The notes under the pieces are model-generated. The model was given only the letters and a program-made list of their open reading frames with translations. It was not told the DNA's origin and did no database searches. 64,000 nt of DNA from positions 2,542,001 through 2,606,000 of the forward strand of contig NC_092650.1 of the NCBI RefSeq assembly GCF_032118995.1, written 5' to 3'. The DNA comes from Asterias amurensis. Lineage: Eukaryota; Echinodermata; Asteroidea; Forcipulatida; Asteriidae. Shown here one piece after another: positions 7,601 through 63,436 of the stretch (position 1 is its first letter; every line of letters starts with the position of its first letter). Made by a program: the position numbers and the translations under genes.

Positions 7601-10600
7601 CAGTGTTGATGACAGTCAGTTTGTAATATTTGTGACTGCCTATATCTCTTGTAGGTCTCTTGCATATGCTGGTCCTATTCCCTGTTGACCCCCCCCCCCC
7701 CCCTAGACCAACATGCGATAAGATGCCAGACTCCGTTTGCTTTCAACAAATTGAAGGTGTCATGCACCACCAAAGTACAGTCATAACCTAAAGTCACTCT
7801 GTAGGCACAGCCAAGTGATTAGCCCATCTCGGCAACTCATTTTGTACGGTAGCATGAAACAAGATGGCTGCTTCTTGTCAGGCATTTTCTGCAGGTACCT
7901 TTATCGCATTCTTTTGTGCTCAGTTGCGTATTGATTTACTCGAGGAGTAAATGTCACATCGGTAACATGAACATATTTAGGTTATGTATACGCCCCATTT
8001 GATTATGTTGACTAATTTACCTCTTCTTTCCTGTGTGTTGTAGGAAGGCCACCAACCCAAACGGATCCAGCTCCAAAAGATCGACAAGTCAAGCGTCGAC
8101 AATTCAAGCGACGCCCCTGGACTGCCCAGGAAAAGAAAGACGTCACCGAGGGCTTGCAGAGATTCTTTTTGCTGAAGAAGATTCCAGGGAAACGTGACAT
8201 TGAATCGTCCTGTCCTGTGGCATTGCAGACCAGAACTTGGAGAAACATTAAGGACTTTTGTAGAAACACGATGACACTTCAACAAATTTAAGGTCTCATG
8301 CACCACCAAAGTACAGTCATAACCTAGAGTGACTCTGTAGGCACAGCCAAATTATTAGTCTAGACCTTTGGCCTGCCCCCCGCCCCCCCCCCCCAAGAAC
8401 AAGAAAATACATGTACTACCCCCAACAACATTTCCTAGAAGGCCAGTATACACATTCACATTAGTGAACCGCAAGAACAAGGATTCATGTGTTATGCCCT
8501 CACATCGATAGGTACCATTCGACTTTTGGCAATGTCCGCCATTGGATAGTATGAAAAGTATGTCCTCAATCTGCAGTGTACACATGTATTGGTGTGTGTG
8601 TGAGGGGGGGGGGAAGTACGTTTCGAATGGTGATTAAATAGACCCCTTGCAAATGACGCCACTGATTGACTGAGAGTCATGCGCAGTGCGTACACACGAG
8701 TGCAGGTTTCCGTAGATTTACATTAAAGGTGGCCGCCATGCAAACGGTCGTTTGTGGTACAACAGTCTCCCCTAAACTTAATCTTGAGTATTTAAAGGAA
8801 CACAAATTTGCCTCGAAATTGCGTGGTTTTCCTTTTTCTTTGCGAACTAACACGGTCGGCCATTATGGGAGTCAAATAAATTGGCTCCCATAAATGGGAA
8901 AAATGTAAAAAACATCTGTTTGTCGCAGTCCGAAGATTAAAATAACAAAAATTAAAATACATATTTACATTTTTATATAAAATTTTTAAAAAGCACATGA
9001 GAATATTTATACACAAGAAACATTAAAAATTTAAAAAGCGAAAGTCAAAAGAGACGTTATGAGAACTTAAATTAGATAAACATAGACAATAAATTTTAAC
9101 AAGCACACCTAACTAACAAACCCAAACACCCAAACAAACACCCAAACGAACATCAAAACAAACAACTAAACAAACAAAATTGGAGGCCTGCTTAAATGTG
9201 TTAAAGTCATCTGGAAATATAAAAAAAATCTTCAAACATTAGAGTATATGTTTCTAAACAATAAAATAATTTTTTGAGTAATTGTTTTTAACGACTTATA
9301 TGCTTAAAAAAATTAATAAAGTGGTGTGGGGGTGACTCCGCCTACCCCTTTTGTGACGTCAATCGAGGCAGACTTTGCCTCGATCGAACATCGAATTCGA
9401 ACACACGTACGTGCAAGTACATTCAAGTCCTAGTCGTGAATTTGTACGTTTCGAACAAGTTTTTTTCTTGCATTTTTCCGGCAATGTCGACCAGGTGTAT
9501 TGCTGCTGGATGCAGCAAAACAACTAAAGATGACATGAAGAAAGAAGATCTTTTCTTAAACATAACGCCATCCCAACAATTTGTCCAGCTAGTGGGGAAG
9601 TCGAAGAAGGTAACTGAAAGACGTAACGAACCTAAATGAGCAGTTGCCTAACGTGACAAAAAATCAGGTATTGTTTCAACTTTTAGGGCATGTTTTTAGC
9701 TTTCGCCAAGCGTCACTATCTAGTGTTGGTACTGCATGCGATTCATCGCGCCTCGATTGACGTCACGAACAGCGCCCTCTCGGGTCGGGCTAATTTTCAA
9801 ATTTGTAAATAAAATGGAAACTAATTTTTTTAAAACCATAGTTAATTGTTTATTCATATTCCACTCATCAAACCACATATTTTAGTGACAAAAGCTTTAT
9901 TTTGACAAAATACCACTTCCATGTTCAAAATACTGGTGAGGTAGTGAATGTCGCTAGACCTGTATCGGTTGGTTCTGCACCTGATACTAGACAAAGAGTC
10001 GGAATTCCTAAGGTTATTATTCCATGCAGGAGGCAGCCACTCTCTATGTGGTTGAGGACAGGTCCGAATTACCAAAATTCAAAGAGAGCTGTTCAAGTCT
10101 TTCAGTGAGGGGCGGAATGTTAAGCACCACACAAATATCTGCAAAAAACACCAAACTTTAAAAGAAAAACCGGAGCTCTAACAGTTGCGATGTGGACGCG
10201 CTGAAAAACTCTACCAAAAAAGAAAAAAAAAAACATCTTTCCAACCATATGCATTGAATAACAAACGATTATCAACGCTTTTCAAAGACCAACTCGACCG
10301 GTCTAAGGCAACGTGTTCCTTTAAAAGATAATGTTGTGTGCTTGTGTCTTTTTCTACCTCCATGGTTTAACCACGATTGCAAGCAAACAAAACCTACCAT
10401 GGATCTTCGTCATAGATACTGACTCCTGGAGCTCTTCCACCTGACGCCCACTGACTCCCATTTCACGTCTTATGTCTTTTAACTGAAGTGTTGTGTTTCT
10501 TAGTGCGACAGTTACCATTTGTTGGTTGGTAGTTACTGCAACCTGCAACTCACTAACCATACGACGTGTTTCCTCTTGCTCAGAGGTGGCTGTTTCTTGG

Positions 10601-10995
10601 TTGGTTGATATTGCAGCCATTGTACGTCTTGCCGCAGTCTGCAACTCACTAACCATTCGACGTGTTTCCTCTTGCTCAGAGGTGGCTGTTTCTTGGTTGG
10701 TTGATATTGCAGCCATCGTACGTCTTGTGTCCTCCAGCTCAGATGAAACAGTTTCATGACTATCAGTCATTATTACTTTGAGCTCTTTCACCTGGTCTTG
10801 TGTGTTTCTGAGTTCATCTTCAAGAATGACTAGGTAGTTTTCTACTATAAGCCTCAACTCGTCTACCTTACTATTTGTATCTACATCACATGAAACCGTT
10901 CTCTGGTTGCTGGAAGCTTCAACTTGTAGTTCAACTTCAGACTTCACAATCAGAACGACCAAGAGCGAACGGATAAACAACCCCATTTTGCTCAA
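1689..10995 (-). CDS. FReD gene 1: secreted ficolin-like lectin, 412 aa
   Basis: Predicted secreted fibrinogen-related lectin. Exons (minus strand): 10398-10995, 2645-2775, 2267-2528, 1689-1936, with GT/AG introns in phases 1, 0 and 1, giving 412 residues. Residues 1-20 contain a hydrophobic [12 protein letters not shown] signal core. About 40-199 is a Glu/Gln/Thr-rich coiled coil with two 25-residue [16 protein letters not shown] repeats plus one degenerate repeat. The FReD runs from Cys205 to the end: Cys233 with DGGGW, calcium-site motif KDRDND (345-350), Cys pair 357/370 and SNLN-type motif TNLN (373-376). Ficolins and tachylectin-5A with this fold bind acetylated sugars through the pocket beside the second Cys; specificity here is inferred. 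Intron 1 is 7.6 kb because of transposon inserts. The ATG is the first in the signal frame and is shared by genes 3-5. Confidence 0.88.
2869..3267. mobile_element. Palindromic TTAA MITE, family A (intron 1 of gene 1)
   Basis: Begins TTAAAAGCACTGGACACTA and ends GTCCAGTGCCTTTAA, flanked by TTAA on both sides. Same position as copies in genes 3, 4 and 5, so it predates the unit duplications. Confidence 0.8.
3270..3580. repeat. Repeat rich in AGAGTGAAAG / CTTTCACTCT motifs
   Basis: Alternating short motifs (AAGAGTGAAA, CACTCT, ACTCAAAAAGAGT) in both orientations make a low-complexity, partly palindromic stretch. It is shared with 33,620-33,930, 48,640-48,930 and 61,790-62,080. No coding signal. 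Confidence 0.5.
4279..4412. repeat. ~16-bp minisatellite
   Basis: About eight imperfect copies of AAGTCAATTCGTACCC, 15-18 bp each, inside an intron of the recombinase-like gene. Confidence 0.7.
4509..8291 (+). CDS. Tyrosine-recombinase plus SANT/Myb-like gene (transposon-type), decayed
   Basis: Likely exons: 4509-4579, 5243-7202, 7537-7614, 8044-8291; all junctions fit in phase. The 5' start was not found. The first part encodes an acidic stretch with three ~22-residue repeats (key [11 protein letters not shown]). The main frame 5596-7158 (520 codons) has an RHL..H finger-like start and a C-terminal tyrosine-recombinase domain: R338-R340 (NRRRQGE), K386 (GKRGR), R461 (KLRKH), H487 (MGHD) and Tyr495/496 (REYY). 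The last exon encodes a basic SANT/Myb-like segment (RPWT..EK, PGKRD, WRNIK) ending in TAA. A YR-only protein points to a Crypton-type DNA transposon or a host gene derived from one. The reading frame changes about twice within the long exon, so this copy looks non-functional unless splicing differs. Confidence 0.65.
4810..5097. mobile_element. Palindromic TTAA MITE, family B, left end eroded
   Basis: Inner palindrome CGGTCGGCCATTTATGGGAG and its complement around 4,888-4,930. The right end GGCAACGTGTTCCTTTAA matches the family B end; the left end is not recognisable. Confidence 0.7.
7741..7813 (+). repeat. 73-bp direct repeat, copy 1
   Basis: TTCAACAAATTGAAGGTGTC..., nearly identical to 8,278-8,350. 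The second copy spans the stop codon of the SANT-like exon, so this copy is a duplicate of that gene end lying in the preceding intron. Confidence 0.75.
8278..8350 (+). repeat. 73-bp direct repeat, copy 2
   Basis: Partner of 7,741-7,813; begins within the last codons of the SANT-like exon. Confidence 0.75.
8792..10324. mobile_element. Family B TTAA MITE carrying a nested THAP-type element
   Basis: Left end TTAAAGGAACAC and right end CAACGTGTTCCTTTAA belong to one family B copy split by a ~1.3 kb insert (~8,900-10,230). Unit 3 has the same nest (34,139-35,779). Unit 4 has the uninterrupted target GATATTTAAGAGG at 49,157-49,160, which shows a TTAA target site. Confidence 0.75.
8900..10230 (+). 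mobile_element. THAP-exon-bearing DNA transposon remnant
   Basis: Contains an open frame 9484-9639 starting [17 protein letters not shown], like the first Cys pair of a THAP domain (C-x4-C then a basic/hydrophobic stretch), but the conserved Trp and the later Cys/His are missing. Flanks share GTGACGTCAATCGAGGCAGA and, in opposite orientation, CGCCTCGATTGACGTCACG, resembling terminal or subterminal inverted repeats. Relation to P/THAP9-type transposons is inferred. No transposase body remains. Confidence 0.5.
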
Positions 10996-16671: not shown

Positions 16672-19600
16672 CTAAACTTTCCTTCTAATTTTCATCTCAG
16701 TTGTTTTGAGTGAGCGGTAACCCGAAAAGCCATACCACTTAATTCCTTCTGAGTTCGTAGTGGCATCATTGAAGTATCTCGCGTTCAAATTGGATTTGTA
16801 GCAGTAACCGTACCACCAGGCTCCGTGGTATAACTCAGCACAGTTAAAAGCATGGGCATCGTTGTCTCGGTCTTTGGTCGAGAAGGCCTGGTTATTGTGC
16901 CATGCTATTAACGCGTCTCCTGAAAGATAACACACGTAGCCATTATAGTCATACGTGTAAATAAAGGCGATGTTGACAGGAGGTAACTTTAAACATTAAT
17001 TTGTTTCGAACATAACTTAGGCCGATAAGGTGTGATTAGAAACAAATTTATCAATTAATGGAACTGGGATATTGGGAGAAGTGAAGTAAATGTTTCACAA
17101 TCAGGTTCATTTTTAACTGCATTTTGTTTTCTTTTCAAAGCCATTGGACACATTCTGAACAGAACCAAAAAATAAAAGTTCACAGATTTACAAATAACTT
17201 ACAAAGTTTACAGAAGGTACTGGTGAAAGACTTCCCATGAAATATTATTCCATGAAACGCTTTACTTTTTGAGAAAACATTAAAACACCTATCAATTTTC
17301 GATATCAACAATAACAGATTTATTATAAACACATTTCATGACATGGCGAAACGTGCGGAAACAAGAGTGGGTTTTTCCCGTTATTTTCTCCCGACTCCGA
17401 TGACCGATTGAGCCTAACTTTTCACAGGTTTGTTGTTTTATATTATTATACGTTGTGATACACGAAGTGGCCTTTGGACAATACTGTTTACCGATGTTGT
17501 GCAATTGCTTTAAGTTACAGTTTAATAAGATAGTTCGAAAATTGCTATCGAAACGGGATTTAAATGCAACGTTTATAAGTTATATTTGTTCTCCTCCAAA
17601 TTGTGATTTTACGAATCTTTTAAATGTTTCTAGCGAGTTTAAAATTGCTGAATTCAAGTTATTCCTCGTACATTTTTTCATTTTTAGTTTCAAGGGATAA
17701 ACATCATCTTCCTCTTTTTTACTTGGTGTTGGGCAGCAAAGGATAATAAAAGTTACACTCCCTCCAATTTTCGGCTTGGTTTGAGCAGCAAGGGATGCAA
17801 AATTCTACCCCTGCTTTTTCCGTCTGGAGTTGAGGAACAAAACATTGACAATTCCCCCTCCACTTTTAAAGGCACTCCAGACACTATTGGTTATTACTCA
17901 AAATGATTATTAGAAACCTACTTGAACTAGCATTGGAGAGATGTGAACATTGTGAGAAACGGCTCCCTCTGAAGGAACGTAGTTTCTGAGAAAGAGGTGA
18001 TTTCTCATTTAACTATTTGAATCACAATGTTGCTTTTCTGTCTTTCATTGACACCTACCAAAAACAATCAGTCACAGCGATGGACACAGAATACCCTGCA
18101 ATATTTCTGTATTACTACGAAGTTTCCACTTATAATCGTACCTGCGGTTCCATTGTAACTTCCTACAGTCAGCCTGTAGTTATCGCTCGCATCGGCGATG
18201 CTGAACGACCCATAAAAGGCAAAGCCGGTAACGTTGTCGAAGCTTGTGAGATCTACGCGGAGTTCGTACTCGCCCTGAGCAGTCAGACGGTGCAAGTTGT
18301 CGTTACCGAGCCAAAACTCTCCCTCTAGATTCCCAAAGCCCCGGCTGTAGCTGGCAAAGTCCAAATAGAAATCTACACTGCCGTCCTGACGCCGCTGGAA
18401 AACCTATCAAGAGAACGTGGAGGTTTTTAAAATAACCCTGGTCTTCTTTGACTTGATCAAACTTATTCTTATTTACAAATATATTCTAGACATGAGTGCT
18501 ATCTCATTCACTATAATCCGTAAACTTACCGTCCATCCACCACCGTCTGTTTCCATATCACAGTATACCTGGAAAGCTTCACCGGAGTCTAGAGGTTGAA
18601 CCAGGTACACGCCACTGATCAATTCACCCCTCGCAAGATTCTCGGAACAGACATTTGGAGGGGCAACTGCACAATATGTAAACAATAAAATAAAAACAAG
18701 TTTTTATTTCACCAACTGTAAGGACATAGATGTTATAATTTAAGAGAGTGCACAGCGCTGGAAAAGACTTGCAAACTGACCCCATCTTTAGTTGGTTTGC
18801 TGCATCCAGCCATCAGCACGTACGTGTATTTGCACGTACGTGTGTTCGATGCTTGATCGAGGCAAAGTCTGCCTCGATTGACGTCACAAAAGGGGTAGGC
18901 GGAGTCACCCCACACAACTTTATTTAATTGTTTAAACATATAAATCGTTAAAAACAATTACTCAACAAATTATTTTATTGTTCAGAAACATATACTCTAA
19001 TGTTTGAAAAAAAACATCTATTTCCAGGTGACTTTAAAGTCACCTGGAACATGATTTTTTTTTTCTTTCAAACATAAGAGTATATGCTTACGAACAATAA
19101 AATAATTCTTTTAGTAATTATTTGTCACGATTTATATGTTTAAAAAATATCTAAAGTTGTTTGGGGGGGCTGACTACGCCTACCCCTTTTGTGACGTCAA
19201 TCGAGGCAGACTTTGCCTGCAATGCGTATAGTAAACACACGTGCAAAGTACATGTACGTCCAAGTCGTGAGTTGGTACATTTCAAAAAGTTTGTTTCTGC
19301 ATTCAGCAGCAATACACCTGGTCGGTAGTGACGGGAAAAAAACTTTTTCCTTCTTCTTTTAAACGTACAAACTCACGACTTGGTCCGTACATGTACTTTG
19401 CAATTGTGTTTACTCTACGCATTACAGGCAAAGTCTGCCTCGATTTACGTCACAAACAGCGCCCTCTCGGGTCGGGGTCTACTCTTAAATTTGTAAATAA
19501 TATAAGAACTGATTTTTTAAAACCTTAGTTAACTGTTTGTTCACATTCCACTCATCAAAACACATATAATTAGTGACAAAAGCTTTATTTTGAAAAAAAT

Positions 19601-31253: not shown

Positions 31254-34200
31254 CTAAACTTCTCTTCTAATTTTCATCTCAGTTGTTTTGAGTGAGCGGC
31301 TACCCGAAAAGCCATTCCACCTCATTTCTCCTCGGGTTATAGCTGAGGACTCATTTAAGTATCTCCCGTTCAAATTGGAGTCGAAGCAGGCACGGTACCA
31401 CCAGGCTCCGTACCACTCAGCACAGTTACTAGAATAGGCATCGTTGTCTCGGTCTTTGGTCGAGAAGGCCATGTTATTGTGGTATGATAACATGTCTCCT
31501 GTAAAATAACACACGTAGCCATTATAGTCATACGTGTAAATAAAGGCGATGTTGACAGGAGGTAACTTTAAACATTAATTTGTTTCGAACATAACTTAGG
31601 CCGATAAGGTGTGATTAGAAACAAATTTATCAATTAATGGAACTGGGATATTGGGAGAAGTGAAGTAAATGTTTCACAATCAGGTTCATTTTTAACTGCA
31701 TTTTGTTTTCTTTTTAAAGCCATTGGACACATTCTGAACAGAAACACAAATTAAAAGTTCACAGACTTACAAAGTTTACAGAAGGTACTTTTCGAGAAAA
31801 CATTAAAACACCTATCAATTTTCGATTTCAACAATAACGGATTTATTATAAACACATTTCATGACATGGCGAAACTTGCGGAAACAAGAGTGGGTTTTCC
31901 CTTTATTTTCTCCCGACTCCGATGACCGATTGAGCCTAACTTTTCACAGGTTTGTTGTTTTATATATATGTTGTGATACACGAAGTGGCCTTTGGACAAT
32001 ACTGTTTACCGATGTTGTGCAATTGCTTTAAGTTACAGTTTAATAAGATAGTTCGAAAATTGCTATCGAAACCGGATTTAACGTTTATACGTTCTATTTG
32101 TTCTCCTTCAAATTGTGGTTTTACGATTCTGTTAAATGTTTCCAGCGAGTTTAAAATTGCTGAATTCAAGTTGTTTGCCGTACATTTTGTAATTTTTTAG
32201 TTTCAAGGGATAAACATTATCTTCCTCTTTTTTACTTGGTGTTGGGCAGCAAAGAATAATAAAAGTTACACCCCTCCAATTTTCGGATTGGTTTGAGCAG
32301 CAATGGATGCAAAATTCTACCCCTCCTTTTTCCGTCTGGAGTTGAGGAACAAAACATAGACAATTCCCCCTTCACTTTTAAAGGCACTCCAGACACTATT
32401 GGTTATTACTCAAAATGATTATTAGAAACCTACTTGAACTAGCAATGGAGAGATGTGAACATTGTGAGAAACGGCTCCCTCTGATGGAACGTAGTTTTTG
32501 AGAAAGAGGTGATTTCTCATTTAACTATTTGAATCACGATGTTGCTTTTCTGTCTTTCATTAAGACCTACCAAAAGCAATCGGTCACAACGATGGACACA
32601 GATTACCCTGCAATATTTCTGTATAACTACAAGTATCCACTTATAATCGTACTTGCGGTTCCAGAGTGTTTTCCTACAGTCAGCGTGTAGTTATCGCTCA
32701 CATCGGTGATGGTAAACGAGTCATACACGGCAAAGCCGGTATCGTCGTCGAAGCCTGTGAGATCTACACGGAGTTCATACTCGCCCTGAGCAGTCAGACG
32801 GTGCAAGTTGTCGTTACCGAGCCAAAACTCTCCCTCTAGATTCCCAAAGCCCCGGCTGTAGTTGGCAAAGTCCAAAAAGAAATCTACACTGCCGTCCTGA
32901 CGCCGCTGGAAAACCTATCGAAGAAAAATTAACGCACATCATTTTGAATGGCTTTGTGTTCACATAACATTTTAGACTTTACACTTCTAAAAAACATGTA
33001 TTTTGGATGGAAAGTCCTCCATTGTCTTACCGTCCAGCCTCCGCCGTCTGTCTCCATATCACAGTACACCTTGAATGGCCTACCGGAGTCCGGCTTCACG
33101 GCATAAACGCCACTGCGTGCCTCACCTCTTGCGAGCACGTCGGAACAATCTCTGACTCCTTATATAAAAAACGAGATAATGATTTTAGTATAGATGGAAA
33201 ACAGAATACCAGGACAAGATTGAAATGAGAATCATCTGCTATATCCCTCTCTTTAAAGTCACTGAATACTATTGGTAACTACTCAAAATAATCGTTAGCA
33301 TAAAACTTACTTGGTAATGAGCAATGGAGAACTGTTGGTGGTATAAAACAGTGTAAGAAACGGCTCCCTCTTAAGTAACGTAGTTTTCGAGAAAGAAGTA
33401 ATTTCCCACTAAAATATTTGATTTGAATTTGTGACTTCAGCTGGGGTCTCGAAATCAAGCGTCTGAAAGCACACAACTTGTGCGACAAGGGTGTTTTTTT
33501 CTTTCTTTATTCTCTTGCAAATTCGACGACTACACAGGTTTGTTATTTTATGCATAATAATGTCGAGTTACACCAAGTGAAAACACTAGTCTTTAACAAT
33601 TACTAAAAGGCGTCCAGTACAAACTCTCTTAATGTAAAAGAGTGAAAAAACACTCCTTTTGTCCGCCATACCACTCTTGCAAAGAGCCATATGACGAAAA
33701 ACTCTTCTTAGAGTGAAAGACGGGTACTTTCAACTCGATTTAGAGTGAAGTTAGTTTGTTTCAATTTCACTCAAAAAGAGTAACACAGTTTGACTTTCAC
33801 TCTCAAAAGAGCGAAACTGACACCACTCGGACAAGAGAGTGACAACACCCTCGTCGTGGCACTTTTGTGTATGAGTAAATTTGAACGCATGTTTATAACA
33901 GACAGAAGGTGTAACGCTTACGATCGGGTGTGTATGCGTGTGTGTGAGGGGGGGGGTGGGAAGTACGTTTCGAATGGTGATTAAATCGACCCCTTGCATA
34001 TGACGCCACTGATTGCCTGAGAGTCATGCGCAGTGCGTACACACGAGTGCAGGTTTCCGTAGATTGACATTAAAGGTGGCCGCCATGCAAACGGTCGTTT
34101 GTGGTACAACAGTCTCCCCTAAACTTAATCTTGAGTATTTAAAGGAACACAAATTTGCCTCGAAATTGCGTGGTTTTCCTTTTACTTTGCGAACTAACAC

Positions 34201-36450
34201 GGTCGGCCATTATGGGAGTCAAATAAATTGGCTGCCATAAATGGCCGACCGTTAGTCGACGCGGTAAAAGGAAAACCACGCAATTTCGAGGCATATTGTG
34301 TGGATCATTGTATTCTACTTTTTTTTATTATATTATTAGTGGTTTATTGTAAAAAACATCTGTTTGTCGCAGTCCAAAAATTAAAATAACAAAAATTAAA
34401 ATACAGATTTACATTTACAAAAGAGACGTTATGAGAACTTAAATTAGATAAAACAAAGACAATACATTTTAACAAGCACACCTAACTAACAAACCCAAAC
34501 ACCAAAACACCCAAACAAACACCCAAACGAACATCCAAACAAACAAACAAACAAACAAACAAACAAACAAACAAACAAACAAACAAACAAACCCAAACAA
34601 ACAAACAAACAAACAAACAAACAAAACAAAAAAAATTGGAGGCCTGCTAAAATGTTTTAAAGTCATCTGGAAATATAAAAAAAAATCTTCAAACATTAGA
34701 GTATATGTTTCTAAACAATAAAATAATTTTTGAGTAATTGTTTTTAACGATTTATATGCTTAAAAAAATTAATAAAGTGGTGTGGGGGTGACTCCGCCTA
34801 CCCCTTTTGTGACGTCAATCGAGGCAGACTTTGCCTCGATCGAACATCGAATTCGAACACACGTACGTGCAAGTACATTCAAGTCCTAGTCGTGAGTTTG
34901 TACGTTTGGAACAAGTTTTTTTCTTGCATTTTTCCGGCAATGTCGACCAGGTGTATTGCTGCTGGATGCAGCAAAACAACTAAAGATGACATGAAGAAAG
35001 AAGTTCTTTTCTTAAACATAACGCCATCCCAACAATTTGTCCAGCTAGTGGGGAAGTCGAAGAAGGTAACTGAAAGACGTAACGAACCTAAATGAGCAGT
35101 TGCCTAACGTGACAAAAAATCAGGTATTGTTTCAACTTTTAGGGCATGTTTTTAGCTTTCGCCAAGCGTCACTATCTTGTGTTGGTACTGCATGCGATTC
35201 ATCGCGCCTCGATTGACGTCACGAACAGCGCCCTCTCGGGTCGGGCTAATTTTCAAATTTGTAAATAAAATGGAAACTAATTTTTTTAAAACCATAGTTA
35301 ATTGTTTATTCATATTCCACTCATCAAACCACATATTTTAGTGACAAAAGCTTTATTTTGACAAAATACCACTTCCATGTTCAAAATACTGGTGAGGTAG
35401 TGAATGGCGCTAGACCTGTATCGGTTGGTTCTGCACCTGATACTAGACAAAGAGTCGGAATTCCTAAGGTTATTGTTCCATGCAGGAGGCAGCCACTCTC
35501 TATGTGGTTGAGGACAGGTCCGAATTACCAAAATTCAAAGAGAGCTGTTCAAGTCTTTCAGTGAGGGGCGGAATGTTAAGCACCACACAAATATCTGCAA
35601 AAAACACCAAACTTTAAAAGAAAAACCGGAGCTCTAACAGTTGCGATGTGGACGCGCTGAAAAACTCTACCAAAAAAGAAAAAAAAAACATCTTTCCAAC
35701 CATATGCATTGAATAACAAACGATTATCAACGCTTTTCAAAGACCAACTCGACCGGTCTAAGGCAACGTGTTCCTTTAAAAGATAAAGTTGTGTGCTTGT
35801 GTCTTTTTCTACCTCCATGGTTTAACCACGATTGCAAGCAAACAAAACCTACCATGGATCTTCGTCATAGATACTGACTCCTGGAGCTCTTCCACCTGAC
35901 GCCCACTGACTCCCATTTCACGTCTTATGTCTTTTAACTGAAGTGTTGTGTTTCTTAGTGCGACAGTTACCATTTGTTGGTTGGTAGTTACTGCAACCTG
36001 CAACTCACTAACCATACGACGTGTTTCCTCTTGCTCAGAGGTGGCTGTTTCTTGGTTGGTTGATATTGCAGCCATTGTACGTCTTGCCGCAGTCTGCAAC
36101 TCACTAACCATTCGACGTGTTTCCTCTTGCTCAGAGGTGGCTGTTTCTTGGTTGGTTGATATTGCAGCCATCGTACGTCTTGTGTCCTCCAGCTCAGATG
36201 AAACAGTTTCATGATTATCAGTCATTATTACTTTGAGCTCTTTCACCTGGTCTTGTGTGTTTCTGAGTTCATCTTCAAGAATGACTAGGTAGTTTTCTAC
36301 TATAAGCCTTAACTCGGCTACCTTACTATTTGTATCTACATCACATGAAACTGTTCTCTGGTTGCTGGAAGCTTCAACTTGTAGTTCAACTTGAGACTTC
36401 ACAATCAGAATGACCAAGAGCGAACGGATAAACAACCCCATTTTGCTCAA
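31254..36450 (-). CDS. FReD gene 3: secreted ficolin-like lectin, 410 aa
   Basis: Exons 35853-36450, 33031-33158, 32653-32914, 31254-31498; phases as in gene 1. The first exon differs from gene 1 at only four residues (two coiled-coil repeats), but the last exon differs at roughly a third of positions and is one codon shorter. Exon 2 uses an acceptor three bases further in (TATAAG/GAGTC), removing one residue without shifting frame. The exon 3 donor is CAA/GTACGA instead of CAG/GTACGA, so the junction codon becomes Arg instead of Gly. KDRDND, the Cys pair ([14 protein letters not shown]) and SNLNGRY are present; the His of the loop H-G-A-W-W is deleted. The residue after the second Cys is Phe. 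Confidence 0.88.
31714..32031. mobile_element. TTAA MITE, family D
   Basis: TTAAAGCCATTGGACACATT to CAATTGCTTTAA, intron 3 of gene 3; internally shorter than the unit 2 copy. Confidence 0.75.
32378..32565. mobile_element. Family A TTAA MITE, half copy
   Basis: TTAAAGGCACTCCAGACAC then family A left half only; orthologous to 17,866. Confidence 0.65.
33253..33620. mobile_element. Family A TTAA MITE (intron 1 of gene 3)
   Basis: TTAAAGTCACTGAATACTA to GGCGTCCAGTAC; the right terminal bases are lost. Orthologous to 2,869. Confidence 0.75.
34139..35779. mobile_element. Family B TTAA MITE with nested THAP-type element
   Basis: Same nest as 8,792-10,324, but more of the left arm is kept (up to GTGTGGATCATTGTATTC). 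The THAP-like frame 34,939-35,095 and its flanks are nearly identical to unit 1. Confidence 0.75.
34536..34625. repeat. (AAAC)n microsatellite
   Basis: About 20 AAAC units with one AAACCC interruption; unit 1 has only a few at 9,117-9,175. The FVCLFVCL minus-strand frame is its shadow. Confidence 0.9.
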
Positions 36451-46186: not shown

Positions 46187-49100
46187 CTAAACTTTCCTTC
46201 TAATCTTCATCTCAGTTGTTTTGAGTGAGCGGCCACCCGAAAAGCCTAACCACCTAATTCCTTCTGTGTTCGTAGTGGCCTCATTGAAGTATCTCCCGTT
46301 CAAATTGGAGTTGATGCAGTACTTGTACCACCAGCCTCCGTGGTATTCCTCAGCACAGTCACCACTACTCCAGGCATCGTTGTCTCGGTCTTTGGTCGAG
46401 AAGGCCTGGTTATTGTGGTAGTGTGATAACCTGTCTCCTGTAAGATAACACACGTAGCCATTATAGTCATACGTGTAAATAAAGGCGATGTTGACAGGAG
46501 GTAACTTTAAACATTAATTTGTTTTGAACATAACCTAGGCCGATAAGGTGTGATTAGAAACAAATTTATCAATTAATGGAACTGGGATATTGGGAGAAGT
46601 GAAGTAAATGTTTCACAATCAGGTTCATTTTTAACTGCATTTTGTTTTCTTTTTAAAGCCATTGGACACATTCTGAACAGAACCAAAAATTAAAAGTTCA
46701 CAGATTTACAAATAACTTACAAAGTTTACAGAAGGTACTGGTGAAAGACTTCCCTTGAAATATTATTCCATGAAACGCTTTACTTTTTGAGAAAACATTA
46801 AAACACCTATCAATTCTCGATATCAACAATAACGGATTTATTTTAAATACATGTCATGACATGGCAAAACGTGCGGAAACAAGAGTGGGTTTTCCCGTTA
46901 TTTTCTCCCGACTCCGATGACCGATTGAGCCTAACTTTTCACAGGTTTGTTGTTTTATATCGTTGTGATACACGGAGTGGCCTTTGGACAATACTGTTAA
47001 CCGATGTTGTGCAATTGCTTTAAGTTACAGTTTAATAAGATAGTTCGAAAATTGCTATCGAAACGGGATTTAAAAGCAACGTTTATACGTTATATTTGTT
47101 CTCCTCCAAATTGTGGTTTTACGATTCAGTTAAATGTTTCTAGCGAGTTTAAAATTGCTGAATTCAAGTTATTTGTCGTACATTTTGTCATTTTTTAGTT
47201 TCAAGGGATAAACATCATCTTCCTCTTTTTTACTTGGTGTTGGGCAGCAAAGGATAATAAAAGTTACACCCCTCCAATTTTCGGCTTGGTTTGAGCAGCA
47301 AGGGATGCAAAAATCTACCCCTCCTTTTTCCGTCTGGAGTTGAGGAACAAAACATAGACAATTCCCCCTCCACTTTTAAAGGCACTCCAGACACTATTGG
47401 TTATTACTCAAAATGATTATTAGAAACCTACTTGAACTAGCAATGGGGAGATGTGAACATTGTGAGAAACGGCTCCCTCTGAAGGAACGTAGTTTTTGAG
47501 AAAGAGGTGATTTCTTATTCAACTATTTGAATCACGATGTTGCTTTTCTGTCTTTCATTGACACCTACCAAAAGCAATCGGTCACAACGATGGACACAGA
47601 TTACCCTGCAATATTTCTGCATAACTACAAGTATCCACTTATAGCATCTTACCTGCGGTTCCCGAGTAACTTCCTACAGTCAGCCTGTAGTTATCGCTCA
47701 CATCGGCGATGCTGAACGATCCATACCAGGCAAAGCCGGTATCGTCGTCGAAGCTTGTGAGATCTACGCGGAGTTCGTACTCGCCCTGAGCAGTCAGACG
47801 GTGCAAGTTGTCGTTACCCAGCCAAAACTCTCCCTCTAGATTCCCAAAGCCCCGGCTGTAGTTGGCAAAGTCCAAATAGAAATCTACACTGCCGTCCTGA
47901 CGCCGCTGGAAAACCTATCGAAGACAAATTAACGCACATCATTTTGAATGGTTTTGTGTTCACCTAACATTTTAGACTTTACACTTCTAAAAAATGTGTA
48001 TTTTGGAAGGAAAGTCCTCCATTGTCTTACCGTCCAGCCTCCGCCGTCTGTCTCCATATCACAGTACACCTTGAATGGCCTACCGGAGTCCGGCTTCACG
48101 GCATAAACGCCACTGCGTGCCTCACCTCTTGCGAGCACGTCGGAACAATCTCTGACTCCTTATATAAAAAACGAGATAATGGTTTTAGTATAGATGGAAA
48201 ACAGAATACCAGGACAAGATTGAAATGAGAATCATCTGCTATATCCCTCTCTTTAAAGTCATTGAATACTATTGGTAACTACTCAAAATAATCGTTAGCA
48301 TAAAACTTAATTGGTAATGAGCAATGGAGAGCTGTTGATGGTATAAAACAGGTAAGAATTGAAACGGCTCCCTCTGAAGTAACGTAGTTTTCGAGAACGA
48401 AGTATTAAATACTTCAATTGAATTTGAGACCTCAGCTGAGGTCTCGAAATCAAGCGTCTGAAAGCATACAACTTGTGCGACAAGGGTGTTTTTTCTTTTT
48501 TTTATTCTCTTGCAACTTCTACGACTATTTGACTCCCTAATTTCACAGGTTTGTTATTTTATGCATTATTTTTTACTGTCGAGTTACACCAAGTGAAAAC
48601 ATTGGTCTTTGACAATTACTGAAGGCGTCCAGTGCCTTTAAACATACAAACTCTCTTAATGTAAAAGAGTGAACAAACACTCCTTTTGTCCGCCATACCA
48701 CTCTTGCAATGAGCCATATGACGAAAAACTCTTTTTAGAGTAAAAGACGGGTACTTTCAACTCAATTTAGAGTGAGGTTTGTTCCAATTTCACTCAAAAA
48801 GAGTAACACAGATTGACTATCACTCTCAAAAGAGCGAAAGTGATACCACTCGGAGTGAAAACACCCTTGTCGTCGCACTTTTATGTACGAGTAAATTTGA
48901 ACGCATGTTTATAATGGACAGTTTAAGGTGTAATGCTTACGATCAGGTGTTGGGGGGGGGGGGGGGCGAGTACGTTTCGAATGGTGATTAAATAGACCCC
49001 TTGCATAAATGTCGCCACTGAGGTCCATAAAGGGCCATCTTTGGCGGAGAGTAATGCGCAGCGCGTCACCGCGTTGATAGATTGACATTAAAGGTGGCCG

Positions 49101-50308
49101 CCAATGCTAGGGGTCTTTTGTGTACAACAGTCACCCCTCAACAAAGTCTTGGATATTTAAGAGGTAGTGTTGTCTGCTTGTGTCTATTTTTACCTCCATG
49201 GTTTAACCAATATTGTGAGCAAACAAAACCTACCATGGATCTTCGTCAACCTAGATACTGACTCCTGGAGCTCTTCCACCTGACGCCCAATGACTCCCAT
49301 TTCACGTCTTGTGTCTTTTAACTGAAGTGTTGTGTTTCTTAGTGCGACAGTTACCTTTTGCTGGTTGGTCGAAACTGCAGTCTGCAACTCACTAACCATT
49401 CGACGTGTTTCCTCTTGCTCAGAGGTGGCTGTTTCTTGGTTGGTTGATATTGCAGCCATTATACGTCTTGCCGCAGTCTGCAACTCACTAACCATACGTC
49501 GCGAATTCTGAGCAATAGGTAACACGACGCGTCGTGTTTCCTCTTGCTCAGAGGTGGCTGTTTCTTGGTTGGTTGATATTGCAGCCTGCAACTCACTAAC
49601 CATTCGACGTGTTTTCTCTTGCTCAGAGGTGGCTGTTTCTTGGTTGGTTGATACTGCAGCCTGCAACTCACTAACCATTCGACGTGTTTCCTCTTGCTCA
49701 GAGGTGGCTGTTTCTTGGTTGGTTGATACTGCGACCTGTAACTCACTAACCATACGTCGTGTTTCCTCTTGCTCCGAGGTGGCTGTTTCTTGGTTGGTTG
49801 ATATTGCAACCTGCAACTCACTAACCATTCGACGTGTTTCCTCTTGCTCAGAGGTGGCTGTTTCTTGGTTGGTTGATATTGCAACCTGCAACTCACTAAC
49901 CATTCGACGTGTTTCCTCTTGCTCAGAGGTGGCTGTTTCTTGGTTGGTTGATATTGCAACCTGCAACTCACTAACCATTCGACGTGTTTCCTCTTGCTCA
50001 GAGGTGGCTGTTTCTTGGTTGGTTGATATTGCAGCCATCGTACGTCTTGTGTCCTCCAGCTCCGATGAAACAGTTTCAGTCATTATTACTTTGAGCTCTT
50101 TCACCTGGTCTTGTGTGTTTCTGAGTTCATCTTCAAGAATGACTAGGTAGTTTTCTACAATAAGCCTTAACTCGGCTACCTTACTACTTGTATCTACATC
50201 ACATGAAACCGTTCTCTGGTTGCTGGAAGCTTCAACTTGTAGTTCAACTTGAGACTTCACAATCAGAACGACCAAGAGCGAACGGATAAACAACCCTATT
50301 TTGCTCAA
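46187..50308 (-). CDS. FReD gene 4: secreted ficolin-like lectin with long stalk, 571 aa
   Basis: Exons 49234-50308, 48031-48158, 47653-47914, 46187-46437; phases 1, 0, 1. Signal peptide as in gene 1. The stalk has eight [16 protein letters not shown] repeats on a 25-residue (75-bp) period plus the degenerate ninth; the seventh carries an odd insert (VVLPIAQNS). The exon 3 donor is the best of the family (CAG/GTAAGA). The FReD has [21 protein letters not shown] and SNLNGRYF; Ile follows the second Cys. The short 1.07 kb intron 1 lacks the family B nest. Function inferred as for gene 1; the longer stalk would place the lectin heads further apart in an oligomer. Confidence 0.88.
46653..47023. 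mobile_element. TTAA MITE, family D
   Basis: TTAAAGCCATTGGACACATT to CAATTGCTTTAA, intron 3 of gene 4. Confidence 0.75.
47376..47565. mobile_element. Family A TTAA MITE, half copy
   Basis: Orthologous to 17,866. Confidence 0.65.
48253..48641. mobile_element. Family A TTAA MITE (intron 1 of gene 4)
   Basis: TTAAAGTCATTGAATACTA to GTCCAGTGCCTTTAA. Confidence 0.8.
49377..50040 (-). repeat. 75-bp coding minisatellite in gene 4
   Basis: Period checked at 49,811 / 49,886 / 49,961 (75 bases each, starting CTGCAACTCACTAACC). All in frame; encodes the coiled-coil repeats. Long frames on both strands over it are shadows. Confidence 0.95.
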
Positions 50309-59838: not shown

Positions 59839-62800
59839 CTAAACTTTCCTTCTAATTTTCATCTCAGTTGTTTTGAGTGAGCGGCTACCCGAAAAGCCAT
59901 GCCACCTATTTCCTTCTCCGTTCGTAGTGGCCTCATTGAAGTATCTCCCGTTCAAATTGGAGCTGTAGCAGGAACGGTGCCACCAGGCTCCGTGGTATCG
60001 CTCAGCACAGTTACCACTACTCCAGGTATCGTTGTCTCGGTCTTTGGTCGTAAAGGCCTGGTTATTGTGGACTGACAACTTGTCTGCTGTAAGATAACAC
60101 ACGTAGCCATTATAGTCATACGTGTAAATAAAGGCGATGTTGACAGGAGGTAACTTTAAACATTAATTTGTTTTGAACATAACTTAGGCCGATGAGGTGT
60201 GATTAGAAACAAATTTATCAATTAATGGAACTGGGATATTGGGAAAAGTGAAGTAAATGTTTCACAATCAGGTTCATTTTTAACTGCATTTTGTTTTCTT
60301 TATTTAAAGTTATCATTTAAAGTTGTATTTAAAATTGCTATTGAATTTAAGCAACGTTTATACGTTATAATTTTCCCCTCCAAAGTGTGGTTTAACGATT
60401 CAATAAAGATGTTTCTAACAAGTTTGAATTTCCTCTTTTTCGCTTAGTTTTGGCTACAAGGGGTGCAAAATTCTACCCCTCCTCTTCCGTCTGGAGTTGA
60501 GGAACAAAACATAGACAATTCCCCTCCACTTTTAAAGGCACTCCAGACACTATTGGTTATTACTCAAAATGATTTTTAGAAACTTACTTGAACTAGCATT
60601 GGGGAGATGTGAACATTGTGAGAAACGGCTCCCTCTGAAGGAGCGTAGTTTTTGAGAAAGAGGGGATTTCTCATTCAACTATTTGAATCACGATGTTGCT
60701 TTTCTGTCTTTCATTGACACCTACCAAAAGCAATCGGTCACAACGATGGACACAGATTACCCTGCAATATTTCTGCATAACTACAAGTATCCACTTATAA
60801 TCGTACTTGCGGTTCCAGAGTGACTTCCTACAGTCACCCTGTAGTTATCGTTCACATCGGCGATGCTAAACGTGCCATACAAGGCAAAGCCGGTATCGTC
60901 GTCGAAGCCTGTGAGATCTACCCGGAGTTCGTACTCGCCCTGAGCAGTCAGACGGTGCAAGTTGTCGTTACCGAGCCAAAACTCTCCCTCTAGATTCCCA
61001 AAGCCCCGGCTGTAGCTGGCAAAGTCCAAATAGAAATCTACACTGCCGTCCTGACGCCGCTGGAAAACCTATCGAAGAAAAATTAACGCACATCATTTTG
61101 AATGGCTTTGTGTTCACATAACATTTTAGACTTTACACTTCTAAAAATGTGTATTTTGGATGGAAAGTCCTCCATTGTCTTACCGTCCAGCCTCCGCCGT
61201 CTGTCTCCATATCACAGTACACCTTGAATGGCCTACCGGAGTCCGGCTTTACGGCGTAAACGCCACTGCGTGCCTCACCCCTTGCGAGCACGTCGGAACA
61301 ATCTCTGACTCCTTGTATAAAAACGAGATAATGATTTTAGTATAGATGGAAAACAGAATACCGGGACAAGATTGAAATGAGAATCATCTGCTATATCCCT
61401 CTCTTTAAAGTCACTGAATACTATTGGTAACTACTCAAAATAATCGTTAGCATAAAACTTACTTGGTAATGAGCAATGGAGAGCTGTTGATGGTATAAAA
61501 CAGGGTAAGAATTGAAACGGCTCCCTCTGAAGTAACGTAGTTTTCGAGAACGAAGTATTAAATACTTCAATTGAATTTGAGACCTCAGCTGAGGTCTCGA
61601 AATCAAGCGTCTGAAAGCACACAACTTGTGTGACAAGGGTGATTTTTCTTTCTTTATTCTCTTGCAACTTCTACGACTATTTGACTCCCTTATTTCACAG
61701 GTTTGTTATTTTATGCATTATTTTTTTACTGATGAGTTACACCAAGTGAAAACACTGGTCTTTGACAATTACTTAGGCGTCCAGTGCCTTTAAACATACG
61801 AACTCTCTTAATGTAAAAGAGTGAAAAAACACTCCTTTTGTCCGCCATACCACTCTTGCAAAGAGCCATATGACGAAAAACTCTTTTTAGAGTGAAAGAC
61901 GGGTACTTTCAACTCAATTTAGAGTGAGGTTTGTTCCAATTTAACTCAAAAAGAGTAACACAGATTGACTTTTACTCTCAAAAGAGCGAAAGTGATACCA
62001 CTCGGAGTGAAAACACCCTTGTCGTCGCACTTTTGTGTACGAGTAAATTTGAACGCACGTTTATAATGGACAGTTTAAGGTGTAATGCTAACGATCAGGT
62101 GTGGGGGGGCGAGTACGTTTCGAATGGTGATTAAATAGACCCCTTGCATAATGTCGCCACTGAGGTCCATTAAGGGCCATCTTTGGCGGAGAGTAATGGG
62201 CAGCGCGTTACCGCGCGTTGATAGATTGACATTAAAGGTGGCCGCCAATAGGGGTCTTTTGTGTACAACAGTCTCCCCTAAACTAGTGTTGTCTGCTTGT
62301 GTCTATTTCTACCTGTATGGTTTAACCACTATTGTGAGCAAACAAAACCTACCATGGATCTTCGTCAACGTAGAAACTGACTCCTGGAGCTCTTCCACCT
62401 GACGCCCAACTGCAGTCTGCAACTCACTAACCATTCGACGTGTTTCCTCTTGCTCAGAGGTGGCTGTTTCATGGTTGGTTGATATTGCAGCCATTGTACG
62501 TCTTGCCGCAGTCTGCAACTCACTAACCATTCGACGTGTTTCCTCTTGCTCAGAGGTGACTGTTTCTTGGTTGGTTGATATTGCAGCCATTGTACGTCTT
62601 GCCGCAGTCTGCAACTCACTAACCATTCGACGTGTTTCCTCTTGCTCAGAGGTGACTGTTTCTTGGTTGGTTGATATTGCAGCCATTGTACGTCTTGCCG
62701 CAGTCTGCAACTCACTAACCATTCGACGTGTTTCCTCTTGCTCAGAGGTAGTTGTTTCTTGATTGGTTGATACTGCAACCTGCAACTCACTAACCATTCG

Positions 62801-63436
62801 ACGTGTTTCCTCTTGCTCAGAGCTAGCTGTTTCTTGGTTGGTTGATATTGCAACCTGCAACTCACTAACCATTCGACGTGTTTCCTCTTGCTCAGAGGTG
62901 GCTGTTTCTTGGTTGGTTGATATTGCAGCCTGCAACTCACTAACCATTCGAAGTGTTTTCTTTCGCGCAGAGGTGGCTGTTTTTTTGTTGGTTGATATTG
63001 CAGCCTGCAACTCACTAACCAGTCGACGTGTTTCCTCTTGCTCAGAGGTGGCTGTTTCTTGGTTGGTTGATATTGCAGCCTGCAACTCACTAACCATTCG
63101 ACGTGTTTCCTCTTGCCCAGAGGTGGCTGTTTCTCGGTTGGTTGATATTGCAGCCATCGTACGTCTTGTGTCCTCCAGCTCAGATGAAACAGTTTCATGA
63201 CTATCAGTCATTATTACTTTGAGCTCTTTCACCTGGTCTTGTGTGTTTCTGAGTTCATCGTCAATAATGACCAGGTAGTTTTCTACTATAAGCCTTAACT
63301 CGTCTACCTTACTATTTGTGTCTACATTACATGAAACCGTTCTCTGATGTCTGGAAGCTTCAACTTGTAGTTCAACTTCAGACTTCACAATCAGAACGAC
63401 CAAGAGCGAACGGATAAACAACCCCATTTTGCTCAA
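59839..63436 (-). CDS. FReD gene 5: secreted ficolin-like lectin with long stalk, 573 aa
   Basis: Exons 62353-63436, 61184-61311, 60807-61068, 59839-60086; phases 1, 0, 1. The stalk has nine repeats: some on a 25-residue period, and the last ones on a 32-residue (96-bp) period with an added TAARRTM heptad. The degenerate segment found before the exon end in genes 1, 3 and 4 is deleted. One repeat is strongly altered (TNKKTATSARKKTL). The exon 3 donor is CAA/GTACGA and exon 4 starts with C, so the junction codon is Thr. The FReD has TKDRDND, NCAERYHGAWWHRSC and SNLNGRYF; Tyr follows the second Cys. The family's usual AATAAA behind the stop is changed, and a MITE sits ~65 bases past the stop. 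Confidence 0.88.
60532..60722. mobile_element. Family A TTAA MITE, half copy
   Basis: Orthologous to 17,866. Confidence 0.65.
61405..61793. mobile_element. Family A TTAA MITE (intron 1 of gene 5)
   Basis: TTAAAGTCACTGAATACTA to GTCCAGTGCCTTTAA. Confidence 0.8.
62415..63160 (-). repeat. 75/96-bp coding minisatellite in gene 5
   Basis: 96-base period checked at 62,511 / 62,607 / 62,703 (GTCTGCAACTCACTAACC); 75-base period in the rest. Long frames on either strand over it are shadows of the coding frame. Confidence 0.95.

What the first reader, a model, noticed from the sequence alone, without database searches (positions are those of the whole stretch)
59839..60086. Hypervariable last exon: pocket residues change while scaffold residues and introns stay fixed
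Across the five last exons (1689-1936, 16672-16919, 31254-31498, 46187-46437, 59839-60086) KDRDND, the Cys pair, WW, SNLN and TTEMKIRR are kept. The residues between and after the two Cys and the next ~20 residues change freely. Genes 1 and 3 differ at only four residues in the repeat-bearing first exon but at about a third of the last exon. The residue right after the second Cys, which is His in tachylectin-5A and ficolins and lines the acetyl pocket, is Val, Tyr, Phe, Ile and Tyr in genes 1-5. That fits diversifying selection on binding.
Basis: partly seen in the sequence, partly recalled or inferred. Interest (0 to 1): 0.85.

Follow-up and report, generated by a model that had tools for sequence, protein, structure and literature searches.

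The report
Lectin genes with hypervariable binding pockets
A tandem set of lectin genes, most likely from an echinoderm, keeps its protein frame almost unchanged while residues around the predicted ligand pocket change many times faster than neutral DNA, the mark of strong selection for new binding specificities.

Summary
Five tandem fibrinogen-domain (FReD) genes lie on the minus strand; their last exons are open and correctly placed. Between them the 3' end of intron 3 differs by about 2% and third positions of unchanged codons by 3%, but positions 1 and 2 of the 18 most variable exon-4 codons by 54-58%. Codon models give omega 8-12 at about 27% of exon-4 sites, with a tree or with disjoint pairs (17.9 at 20% on an intron tree). 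Selected columns are enriched at positions aligned to the M-ficolin/FIBCD1 pocket (5 of 7, P=0.005; 7 of 10, P=0.0007), though 11 of 18 are not listed pocket residues. In one intronless FReD group 8 of 9 selected codons fall on the same columns, so the unit is the binding face, not the exon; two other groups show this weakly or not. Corrections: intron 3 is alike across all five genes only near exon 4; gene 1 reads TNLN; no exon 1 was found for gene 2; gene 4's exon 1 begins ATA. Ordinary mutation under strong diversifying selection, with exchange between copies, explains it best. Deaminase hot spots were not enriched; templated mutagenesis was not tested. Ligand and role are unknown.

The parts
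59839..60086 (-). gene 5, exon 4 (last exon; P-subdomain of the FReD, stop codon included)
   Evidence: AG acceptor, open frame, stop
59884..60027 (-). gene 5 hypervariable block, exon-4 alignment columns 22-71
   Evidence: coordinates checked; pN/pS 3.5 for columns 21-71 in the five genes; M8 sites
60087..60336 (-). gene 5, last ~250 bp of intron 3, nearly identical between copies (far end approximate)
   Evidence: 0.0167 pairwise difference in the five genes
60807..61068 (-). gene 5, exon 3
   Evidence: tblastn and splice signals
61184..61311 (-). gene 5, exon 2
   Evidence: tblastn and splice signals
62353..63427 (-). gene 5, exon 1: hydrophobic N-terminus (likely signal peptide) and ~25-residue helical-looking repeats, both read by eye
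1689..1936 (-). gene 1, exon 4
2267..2528 (-). gene 1, exon 3
2645..2772 (-). gene 1, exon 2
10398..10986 (-). gene 1, exon 1
16672..16919 (-). gene 2, exon 4
18142..18403 (-). gene 2, exon 3
18530..18649 (-). gene 2, exon 2 (5' limit not settled); no exon 1 found for this gene
31254..31498 (-). gene 3, exon 4
32653..32914 (-). gene 3, exon 3
33031..33158 (-). gene 3, exon 2
35853..36441 (-). gene 3, exon 1
46187..46437 (-). gene 4, exon 4
47653..47914 (-). gene 4, exon 3
48031..48158 (-). gene 4, exon 2
49234..50299 (-). gene 4, exon 1; first codon reads ATA where genes 1, 3 and 5 have ATG

Best explanation
These are tandemly duplicated, probably secreted FReD lectin genes (repeat-bearing exon 1, FReD in exons 2-4), most likely of an echinoderm. 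Strong diversifying selection acts on about a quarter of the codons of the pocket-bearing P-subdomain, so that each copy presents a different binding face on one fixed scaffold (fold, disulfide, KDRDND calcium-loop motif). Shown: open exon-4 frames in the 20 copies analysed, excess of amino-acid change at particular codons, enrichment of these at pocket-aligned positions, and recurrence at the same columns in one intronless FReD group. Inferred: that the face binds foreign or partner glycans and that host-microbe recognition drives the change; that unequal exchange and gene conversion between units keep neutral DNA alike. The acetyl chemistry of ficolins and tachylectin-5A is probably not kept in this set, because the His after the second Cys is present in 1 of 14 close copies; 4 of 5 more distant relatives, on C13, C14 and C17 (not the one on C2), still have it.
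For: In the five genes: intron 3' end 0.019, third positions of unchanged codons 0.032, exon-wide positions 1+2 0.189, variable codons 0.54/0.58/0.16 at positions 1/2/3. M2a omega 7.7 (29% of sites) on an exon tree, 17.9 (20%) on an intron tree; M8 vs M7 2dlnL 136.7, M8 vs M8a 131.0; tree-free disjoint pairs 2dlnL 117.5, omega 11.5, 27% of sites. Same columns in an intronless group: 8 of 9, Fisher P=4.9e-6, and 6 of 7, P=2.9e-4, in a tighter cluster that shares most of its genes with it, with no selected codon outside the exon-4-equivalent part of the 208-210 codons. Pocket enrichment 5 of 7 and 7 of 10; 4 of 6 (P=0.019) and 5 of 8 (P=0.011) without the hand-placed columns. Pfam Fibrinogen_C 6.7e-72; best solved relatives are ficolins. 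His counts: for the 14, for the distant five.
Against: Over the whole exon in all 14 copies pN/pS is only 1.30 (CI 0.85-1.99). By Nei-Gojobori counting, synonymous differences in residue-invariant codons (0.064 in five genes, 0.147 in 14) are three to four times the intron figure, so the strength of selection depends on the clock chosen. Recombination among copies violates the single tree; only the disjoint-pair test avoids it. Selected columns 3, 5, 6, 7, 25, 26, 31, 43, 56, 63 and 65 are not listed pocket residues in the passages read. Intronless groups C6 (2 of 3 columns shared, P=0.12, two further codons elsewhere) and C9 (no exon-4 column, one elsewhere) do not show the pattern clearly. 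Exon 3 carries a few selected codons (3.7% of sites, 2dlnL 41). Genes 2 and 4 may lack a working 5' end, yet their pockets vary too.
Confidence: 0.83

Rival explanations
1. Gene conversion homogenised introns and flanks, and exon 4 is simply old or under relaxed constraint, without selection for change.
For: Tandem units are mosaic: different segments have different nearest copies at 90-98% identity (blocks over 800 bp); synonymous divergence is patchy, e.g. pS 0 to 0.30 along exon 3 in the five genes, and exon-4 synonymous sites are above the intron level by Nei-Gojobori (0.064 vs 0.017).
Against: Synonymous sites lie between the variable codons of the same exon and stay low (0.032 by third positions; 0.064-0.085 by Nei-Gojobori) against pN 0.52 at the variable codons; a tract that spared exon 4 would have spared them too. 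Change exceeds the synonymous level in the contiguous block (pN/pS 3.5), which relaxed constraint cannot give. Exon-4 frames are open in 20 of 20 copies and 33 columns are invariant in 14 copies.
Confidence: 0.09
2. Targeted mutagenesis of pocket codons (template-based, or cytidine-deaminase hot spots) rather than selection on ordinary mutation.
For: Variable codons are near saturation at positions 1 and 2 while neutral DNA differs by 2-3%; third positions change less (0.225 against 0.307) and double changes are commoner (0.42 against 0.36) than a codon model predicts over all pairs; selected codons hold more WRC/GYW bases (17% vs 11%).
Against: WRC/GYW content is what the encoded residues predict (120 against 117 or 110 expected, P 0.37 and 0.07). 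Single-step changes show no dominant class (15 transitions, 22 transversions). In the seven disjoint pairs (106 codon pairs) the third-position shortfall is slight (0.245 vs 0.284). Template-based mutagenesis was not tested: no template copy or reverse transcriptase was searched for, and base composition at the variable positions cannot decide it.
Confidence: 0.05
3. Selection is real but the driver is not immunity: gamete or self recognition, or adhesion.
For: Nothing computed here distinguishes drivers; FBG domains have also been linked to allorecognition (PMC7588048, passage).
Against: Closest solved relatives by sequence are ficolins, innate-immune lectins; at least one further FReD group diversifies at the same face. 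Both are weak arguments.
Confidence: 0.25

Closest known systems
Ficolins (M-ficolin, L-ficolin) and tachylectin-5A
   Same: FReD fold, conserved Cys pair, KD(R/Q)DND motif, WW, NLNG; E 8e-68 to ficolin-2 and 7e-47 to tachylectin-5A
   Different: No collagen stem in the exons read; a repeat exon instead. Columns aligned to Phe274, Asp282, His284, Ala301 and (hand-placed) Tyr312 of M-ficolin are hypervariable here
FIBCD1
   Same: FReD with an extended S1(1)-S1(3) groove (PMC10825690, passages); columns aligned to Arg412, Asn413 and (hand-placed) His396 are among the selected ones
   Different: Tetrameric membrane protein (abstract start); its acetyl pocket is described as conserved with ficolins and TL5A
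Biomphalaria FREPs
   Same: Large family of FBG-domain immune proteins with coiled-coil-prone segments; diversity by gene conversion and point mutation (PMC7588048, PMC12074976, passages)
   Different: In FREPs the IgSF domains vary and the FBG domain is relatively conserved, although FBG domains of single-FReD proteins of the same snail are less so; here the FBG pocket varies and Pfam gave no IgSF domain for gene 5
Drosophila FBG proteins
   Same: Considerable diversity at positions of the TL5A P-domain binding site is noted (PMC2429915, passages)
   Different: That passage describes diversity across genes; the words selection and nonsynonymous do not occur in the main text
ASSET in snake venom three-finger toxins
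   Same: Introns alike, exon surface segments changed, cysteines and fold kept (PMC2474615, abstract and passages)
   Different: There whole short segments are switched; here single codons change between fixed ones, and adjacent variable states are not co-shared beyond chance (P=0.25)
Sea urchin SpTransformer (185/333)
   Same: Echinoderm tandem immune gene family with high diversity (search listings)
   Different: Unrelated protein; element presence and absence defines its variants (abstract start)

Membership tests
Fibrinogen-related domain (FReD) lectins | Fibrinogen_C domain over its curated cut-off | tested here: met
   242 bits against a cut-off of 22, profile 3-219 of 221, gene 5
Fibrinogen-related domain (FReD) lectins | Cys pair of the P-subdomain and calcium-loop motif KDxDND | tested here: met
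   Both Cys in 14 of 14 close copies; one-residue departures in the motif in L012 and L018
Acetyl-binding ficolin/TL5A type | His directly after the second Cys, lining the acetyl pocket | tested here: not met
   His in 1 of 14 close copies (L013); Tyr 8, Ile 2, Val, Phe, Asn one each; His in 4 of 5 distant relatives
Acetyl-binding ficolin/TL5A type | Binds acetylated ligands with calcium | not testable with these tools
   Needs protein
Ficolin proper | Collagen-like stem | tested here: not met
   Exon 1 of genes 1, 3, 4, 5 reads as ~25-residue repeats without Gly-X-Y runs (by eye); Pfam for gene 5 exon 1 lists HTH_70 (31 bits, cut-off 27, probably chance on the helical repeats) and ILEI below cut-off, no collagen
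FREP (snail type) | IgSF domain(s) N-terminal to the FBG domain | tested here: not met
   No IgSF hit for exon 1 or exons 2-4 of gene 5; other genes not scanned
Diversifying selection on a binding site | dN/dS above 1 at a class of codons, whatever tree is used | tested here: met
Diversifying selection on a binding site | Those codons line the ligand site in three dimensions | tested here: inconclusive
   Enriched at aligned pocket residues; 11 of 18 columns not listed; no coordinates used
Targeted mutagenesis system | Mutation signature beyond what selection gives, or a template | tested here: inconclusive
   Hot-spot and spectrum tests negative; template not searched for

The most novel reading that the evidence does not exclude
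The animal carries a germline repertoire of antibody-like pockets on one lectin scaffold: many FReD copies whose ligand-face codons are randomised to near saturation while everything else is kept alike, perhaps also rewritten somatically or by germline conversion or templated copying from truncated donors such as the partial exon 4 at C20:13173803.
Probability: 0.07. Interest if true: 0.92.

Novelty: new variant of a known kind. Interest (0 to 1): 0.62.

Why it matters
FReD lectins are usually treated as fixed pattern receptors, and in snail FREPs the fibrinogen domain is reported as relatively conserved beside the IgSF domains. Here the pocket face itself is the hypervariable part, at codon resolution, with fold, disulfide and neighbouring synonymous sites nearly fixed, and the same columns are hit again in an intronless group. 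That gives a natural set of pocket variants on one scaffold, makes 'what do they bind?' directly testable by binding arrays, and points to a germline route to a large recognition repertoire in an animal without antibodies.

Tried and rejected
Linkage of variable states as a sign of segment swapping: adjacent sites are not co-shared more than under permutation (84 against 78, P=0.25), though copies differ more than chance in overall sharing (P=0.028). Deaminase hot-spot enrichment: none beyond residue content. Template-based mutagenesis: considered, not tested; mixed bases at variable positions do not decide it. An intron-specific constraint as the cause of the conserved intron end: the alignable part (on average 128 of 296 bp) diverges to 0.15 between set A and set B copies, beside 0.11 at synonymous third positions, so it looks roughly neutral. 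A structure prediction was not attempted: the spliced protein is not given letter for letter by the DNA, and loci from the genome search are not among the sources that tool names; distances to the pocket were therefore not measured. The raw ratio of variable-codon change to intron change (30-50 fold, my arithmetic, no call) is not used as omega, because the repeated units differ by 2-10% over long blocks.

Full report
What is there. The window is G000:C3:2542001-2606000 of a 491.5 Mb genome in 23 contigs. Contig C23 carries COX1. Read with table 9 (AAA Asn, AGR Ser) it gives the residues expected in COX1, judged by eye against recalled motifs; tables 4, 5 and 13 do not. Table 9 serves echinoderms and flatworms, so an echinoderm is most likely; the 22 other contigs and the repeats remind me of sea stars (recalled, not tested). 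Five FReD genes lie on the minus strand, 14-15 kb apart. Genes 1, 3 and 5 are complete: exon 1 (589, 589 and 1075 bp) and exons 2-4 with matching splice signals and phases. Gene 4's exon 1 begins ATA. For gene 2 exons 2-4 are open but no exon 1 was found: in the 2.51-2.60 Mb cluster seven exon-4 hits face six exon-1 hits. Pfam gives Fibrinogen_C for gene 5; its exon 1 passes a cut-off only for HTH_70 (31 bits, cut-off 27), probably by chance on helical repeats. The best solved relatives are ficolins.

Copies used. DNA search with exon 4 gave 25 places in the genome. Five are the window's own genes; five were left out (L029 a truncated exon, L030, L031 and L032 divergent, L033 only 46 bp). The remaining 15 plus the five genes make 20 exon-4 copies, all with open frames ending at a stop. 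Fourteen close copies form set A; six (L022, L024-L028) set B. Exon 3 was used for 12 of the 14 (not L013, L018). L021 was left out of the intron comparison and of the 13-copy trees because most of its intron does not align.

Exon against intron. In the five genes the ~250 columns of intron 3 before exon 4 differ by 0.0167 and the 3' UTR by 0.032; in 13 copies by 0.051 and 0.053. A second count gives 0.019 for the intron, 0.032 for third positions of codons with the same residue, and 0.189 for positions 1+2 of exon 4. Nei-Gojobori pS in residue-invariant codons is higher, 0.064 in five genes and 0.147 in 14. From the five genes to the A-B comparison the intron rises from 0.02 to 0.15 while positions 1+2 rise only from 0.19 to 0.24: variable codons are close to saturated already among the closest copies. 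At the 18 columns with five or more residues among 14 copies, pN is 0.52 and pS 0.085 in the five genes; this choice of columns is circular, so the contiguous block of columns 21-71 was tested too: pN/pS 3.5 (CI 2.0-8.9) in the five genes, 3.2 in genes 1, 3 and 5 alone, 1.7 (CI 1.2-2.6) in all 14. Exon 3 codons 1-50 give 0.15-0.17; exon 3 codons 51-87 give 1.2 in the five genes and 0.62 in 12; the whole of exon 4 in 14 copies gives 1.30, not significant.

Codon models. These are my own implementation with branch lengths from FastTree, scaled, and naive empirical Bayes for sites. M2a against M1a: 2dlnL 131 on an exon-4 tree (omega 7.7, 29% of sites) and 242 on an intron tree (omega 17.9, 20%). 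M8 against M7 137 and against M8a 131. Because copies recombine, I also fitted seven disjoint pairs with no tree: 2dlnL 117.5, omega 11.5, 27% of sites; exon 3 with six pairs gave 41, but at only 3.7% of sites. M8 puts 18 columns over 0.95: 3, 5, 6, 7, 23, 25, 26, 31, 32, 39, 40, 42, 43, 56, 58, 63, 65, 71; M2a the same without 56. Column 6 is an insertion present in two copies.

Pocket. M-ficolin's GlcNAc site is Phe274, Asp282, Cys283, His284, Tyr300, Ala301, Tyr312 (PMC3088710, passages); FIBCD1's extended site adds His382, His396 and Arg412 (PMC10825690, passages). Through the ficolin-2 alignment and the published numbers these are columns 32, 40, 41, 42, 57, 58, 71 and 8, 23, 39. Two are hand-placed: HMMER sets Tyr312 against a gap next to column 71, and column 23 for His396 is by distance from the Cys. 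Selected: 5 of 7 (Fisher P 0.0049) and 7 of 10 (P 0.0007); with the hand-placed columns not counted as pocket, 4 of 6 (P 0.019) and 5 of 8 (P 0.011). Eleven selected columns are outside the list; some neighbour it in sequence, but no distances were measured. Column 42, His284, is Tyr in 8, Ile in 2, and Val, Phe, His, Asn in one each of 14. Five more distant relatives have His in four (C13, C17, two on C14) and Tyr in one (C2), so the loss of His belongs to this set.

Not an exon effect. The genome holds at least 150 scored Fibrinogen_C places (150 of 700 candidates scored), most of them whole domains in one open frame, that is, intronless there. I took 48 of these (8 loci, 40 fetched), chosen by me among those listed without stops and in clusters; L048 and L051 read the same. 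In a group of 12 from C10, M2a beats M1a by 129 (omega 7.1, 8% of 208 codons); of nine codons over 0.95 eight are set-A selected columns (P 4.9e-6) and none lies outside the exon-4-equivalent part. The tighter cluster of eight, mostly the same genes, gives 6 of 7 (P 2.9e-4). C6 gives 2 of 3 (P 0.12) with two further codons elsewhere, and C9 none in the exon-4-equivalent part and one elsewhere. Some other intronless copies are nearly identical to each other. So the pattern recurs but is not universal.

Mechanism. Most likely: duplication makes copies, exchange keeps neutral DNA alike (the units are mosaics of 90-98% identity), and selection for new pockets fixes residue changes at a set of face codons. 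Deaminase hot spots are not enriched beyond residue content and single-step changes show no dominant class; third positions change somewhat less, and double changes somewhat more, than the codon model predicts; templated mutagenesis was not tested. What the pockets bind, and whether the driver is microbes, is inference.

Literature. Eight answered searches of an open-licence library listed no paper whose title or abstract start reports hypervariable FReD pockets in echinoderms; I saw listings and abstract starts, and passages of six papers. Subscription papers are not held, so absence from print is not shown.

Noticed in passing
46187-50299 (gene 4): Exon 1 begins ATA where genes 1, 3 and 5 have ATG, in otherwise near-identical context; the gene may not be translated from the usual start.
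   Followed up: partly
16672-18649 (gene 2): Exons 2-4 open but no exon 1 found; seven exon-4 and six exon-1 hits in the cluster.
   Followed up: partly
L025:2139-2309 (C20:13173803-13173978): A second exon 4 lacking its first 24 codons lies about 410 bp after a complete one; possible alternative end or conversion donor.
   Followed up: no
L036, L037, L038-L040: Exon-1 copies (C3:4.04, 4.06 and 23.57-23.59 Mb) with no exon 2-4 match by tblastn (E 1e-4) in the roughly 7-9 kb held downstream; gene 1 has an intron 1 of 7.6 kb, so exons further away are not excluded.
   Followed up: no
exon 1 of genes 1, 3, 4, 5: The number of ~25-residue repeats differs between genes (exon 1 of 589 bp in genes 1 and 3, 1066 and 1075 bp in genes 4 and 5), so stem length also varies.
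   Followed up: partly
G000:C5:658874-676634: Two COX1-like copies in a nuclear contig beside the mitochondrial contig C23: likely nuclear insertions of mitochondrial DNA or an assembly artefact.
   Followed up: no
L067-L070 and L072-L075: Intronless FReD copies that are nearly identical (C10:19.60-19.62 Mb; C10:12.10 and 13.65 Mb), in contrast to the diversified clusters: recent duplication or haplotype copies.
   Followed up: no
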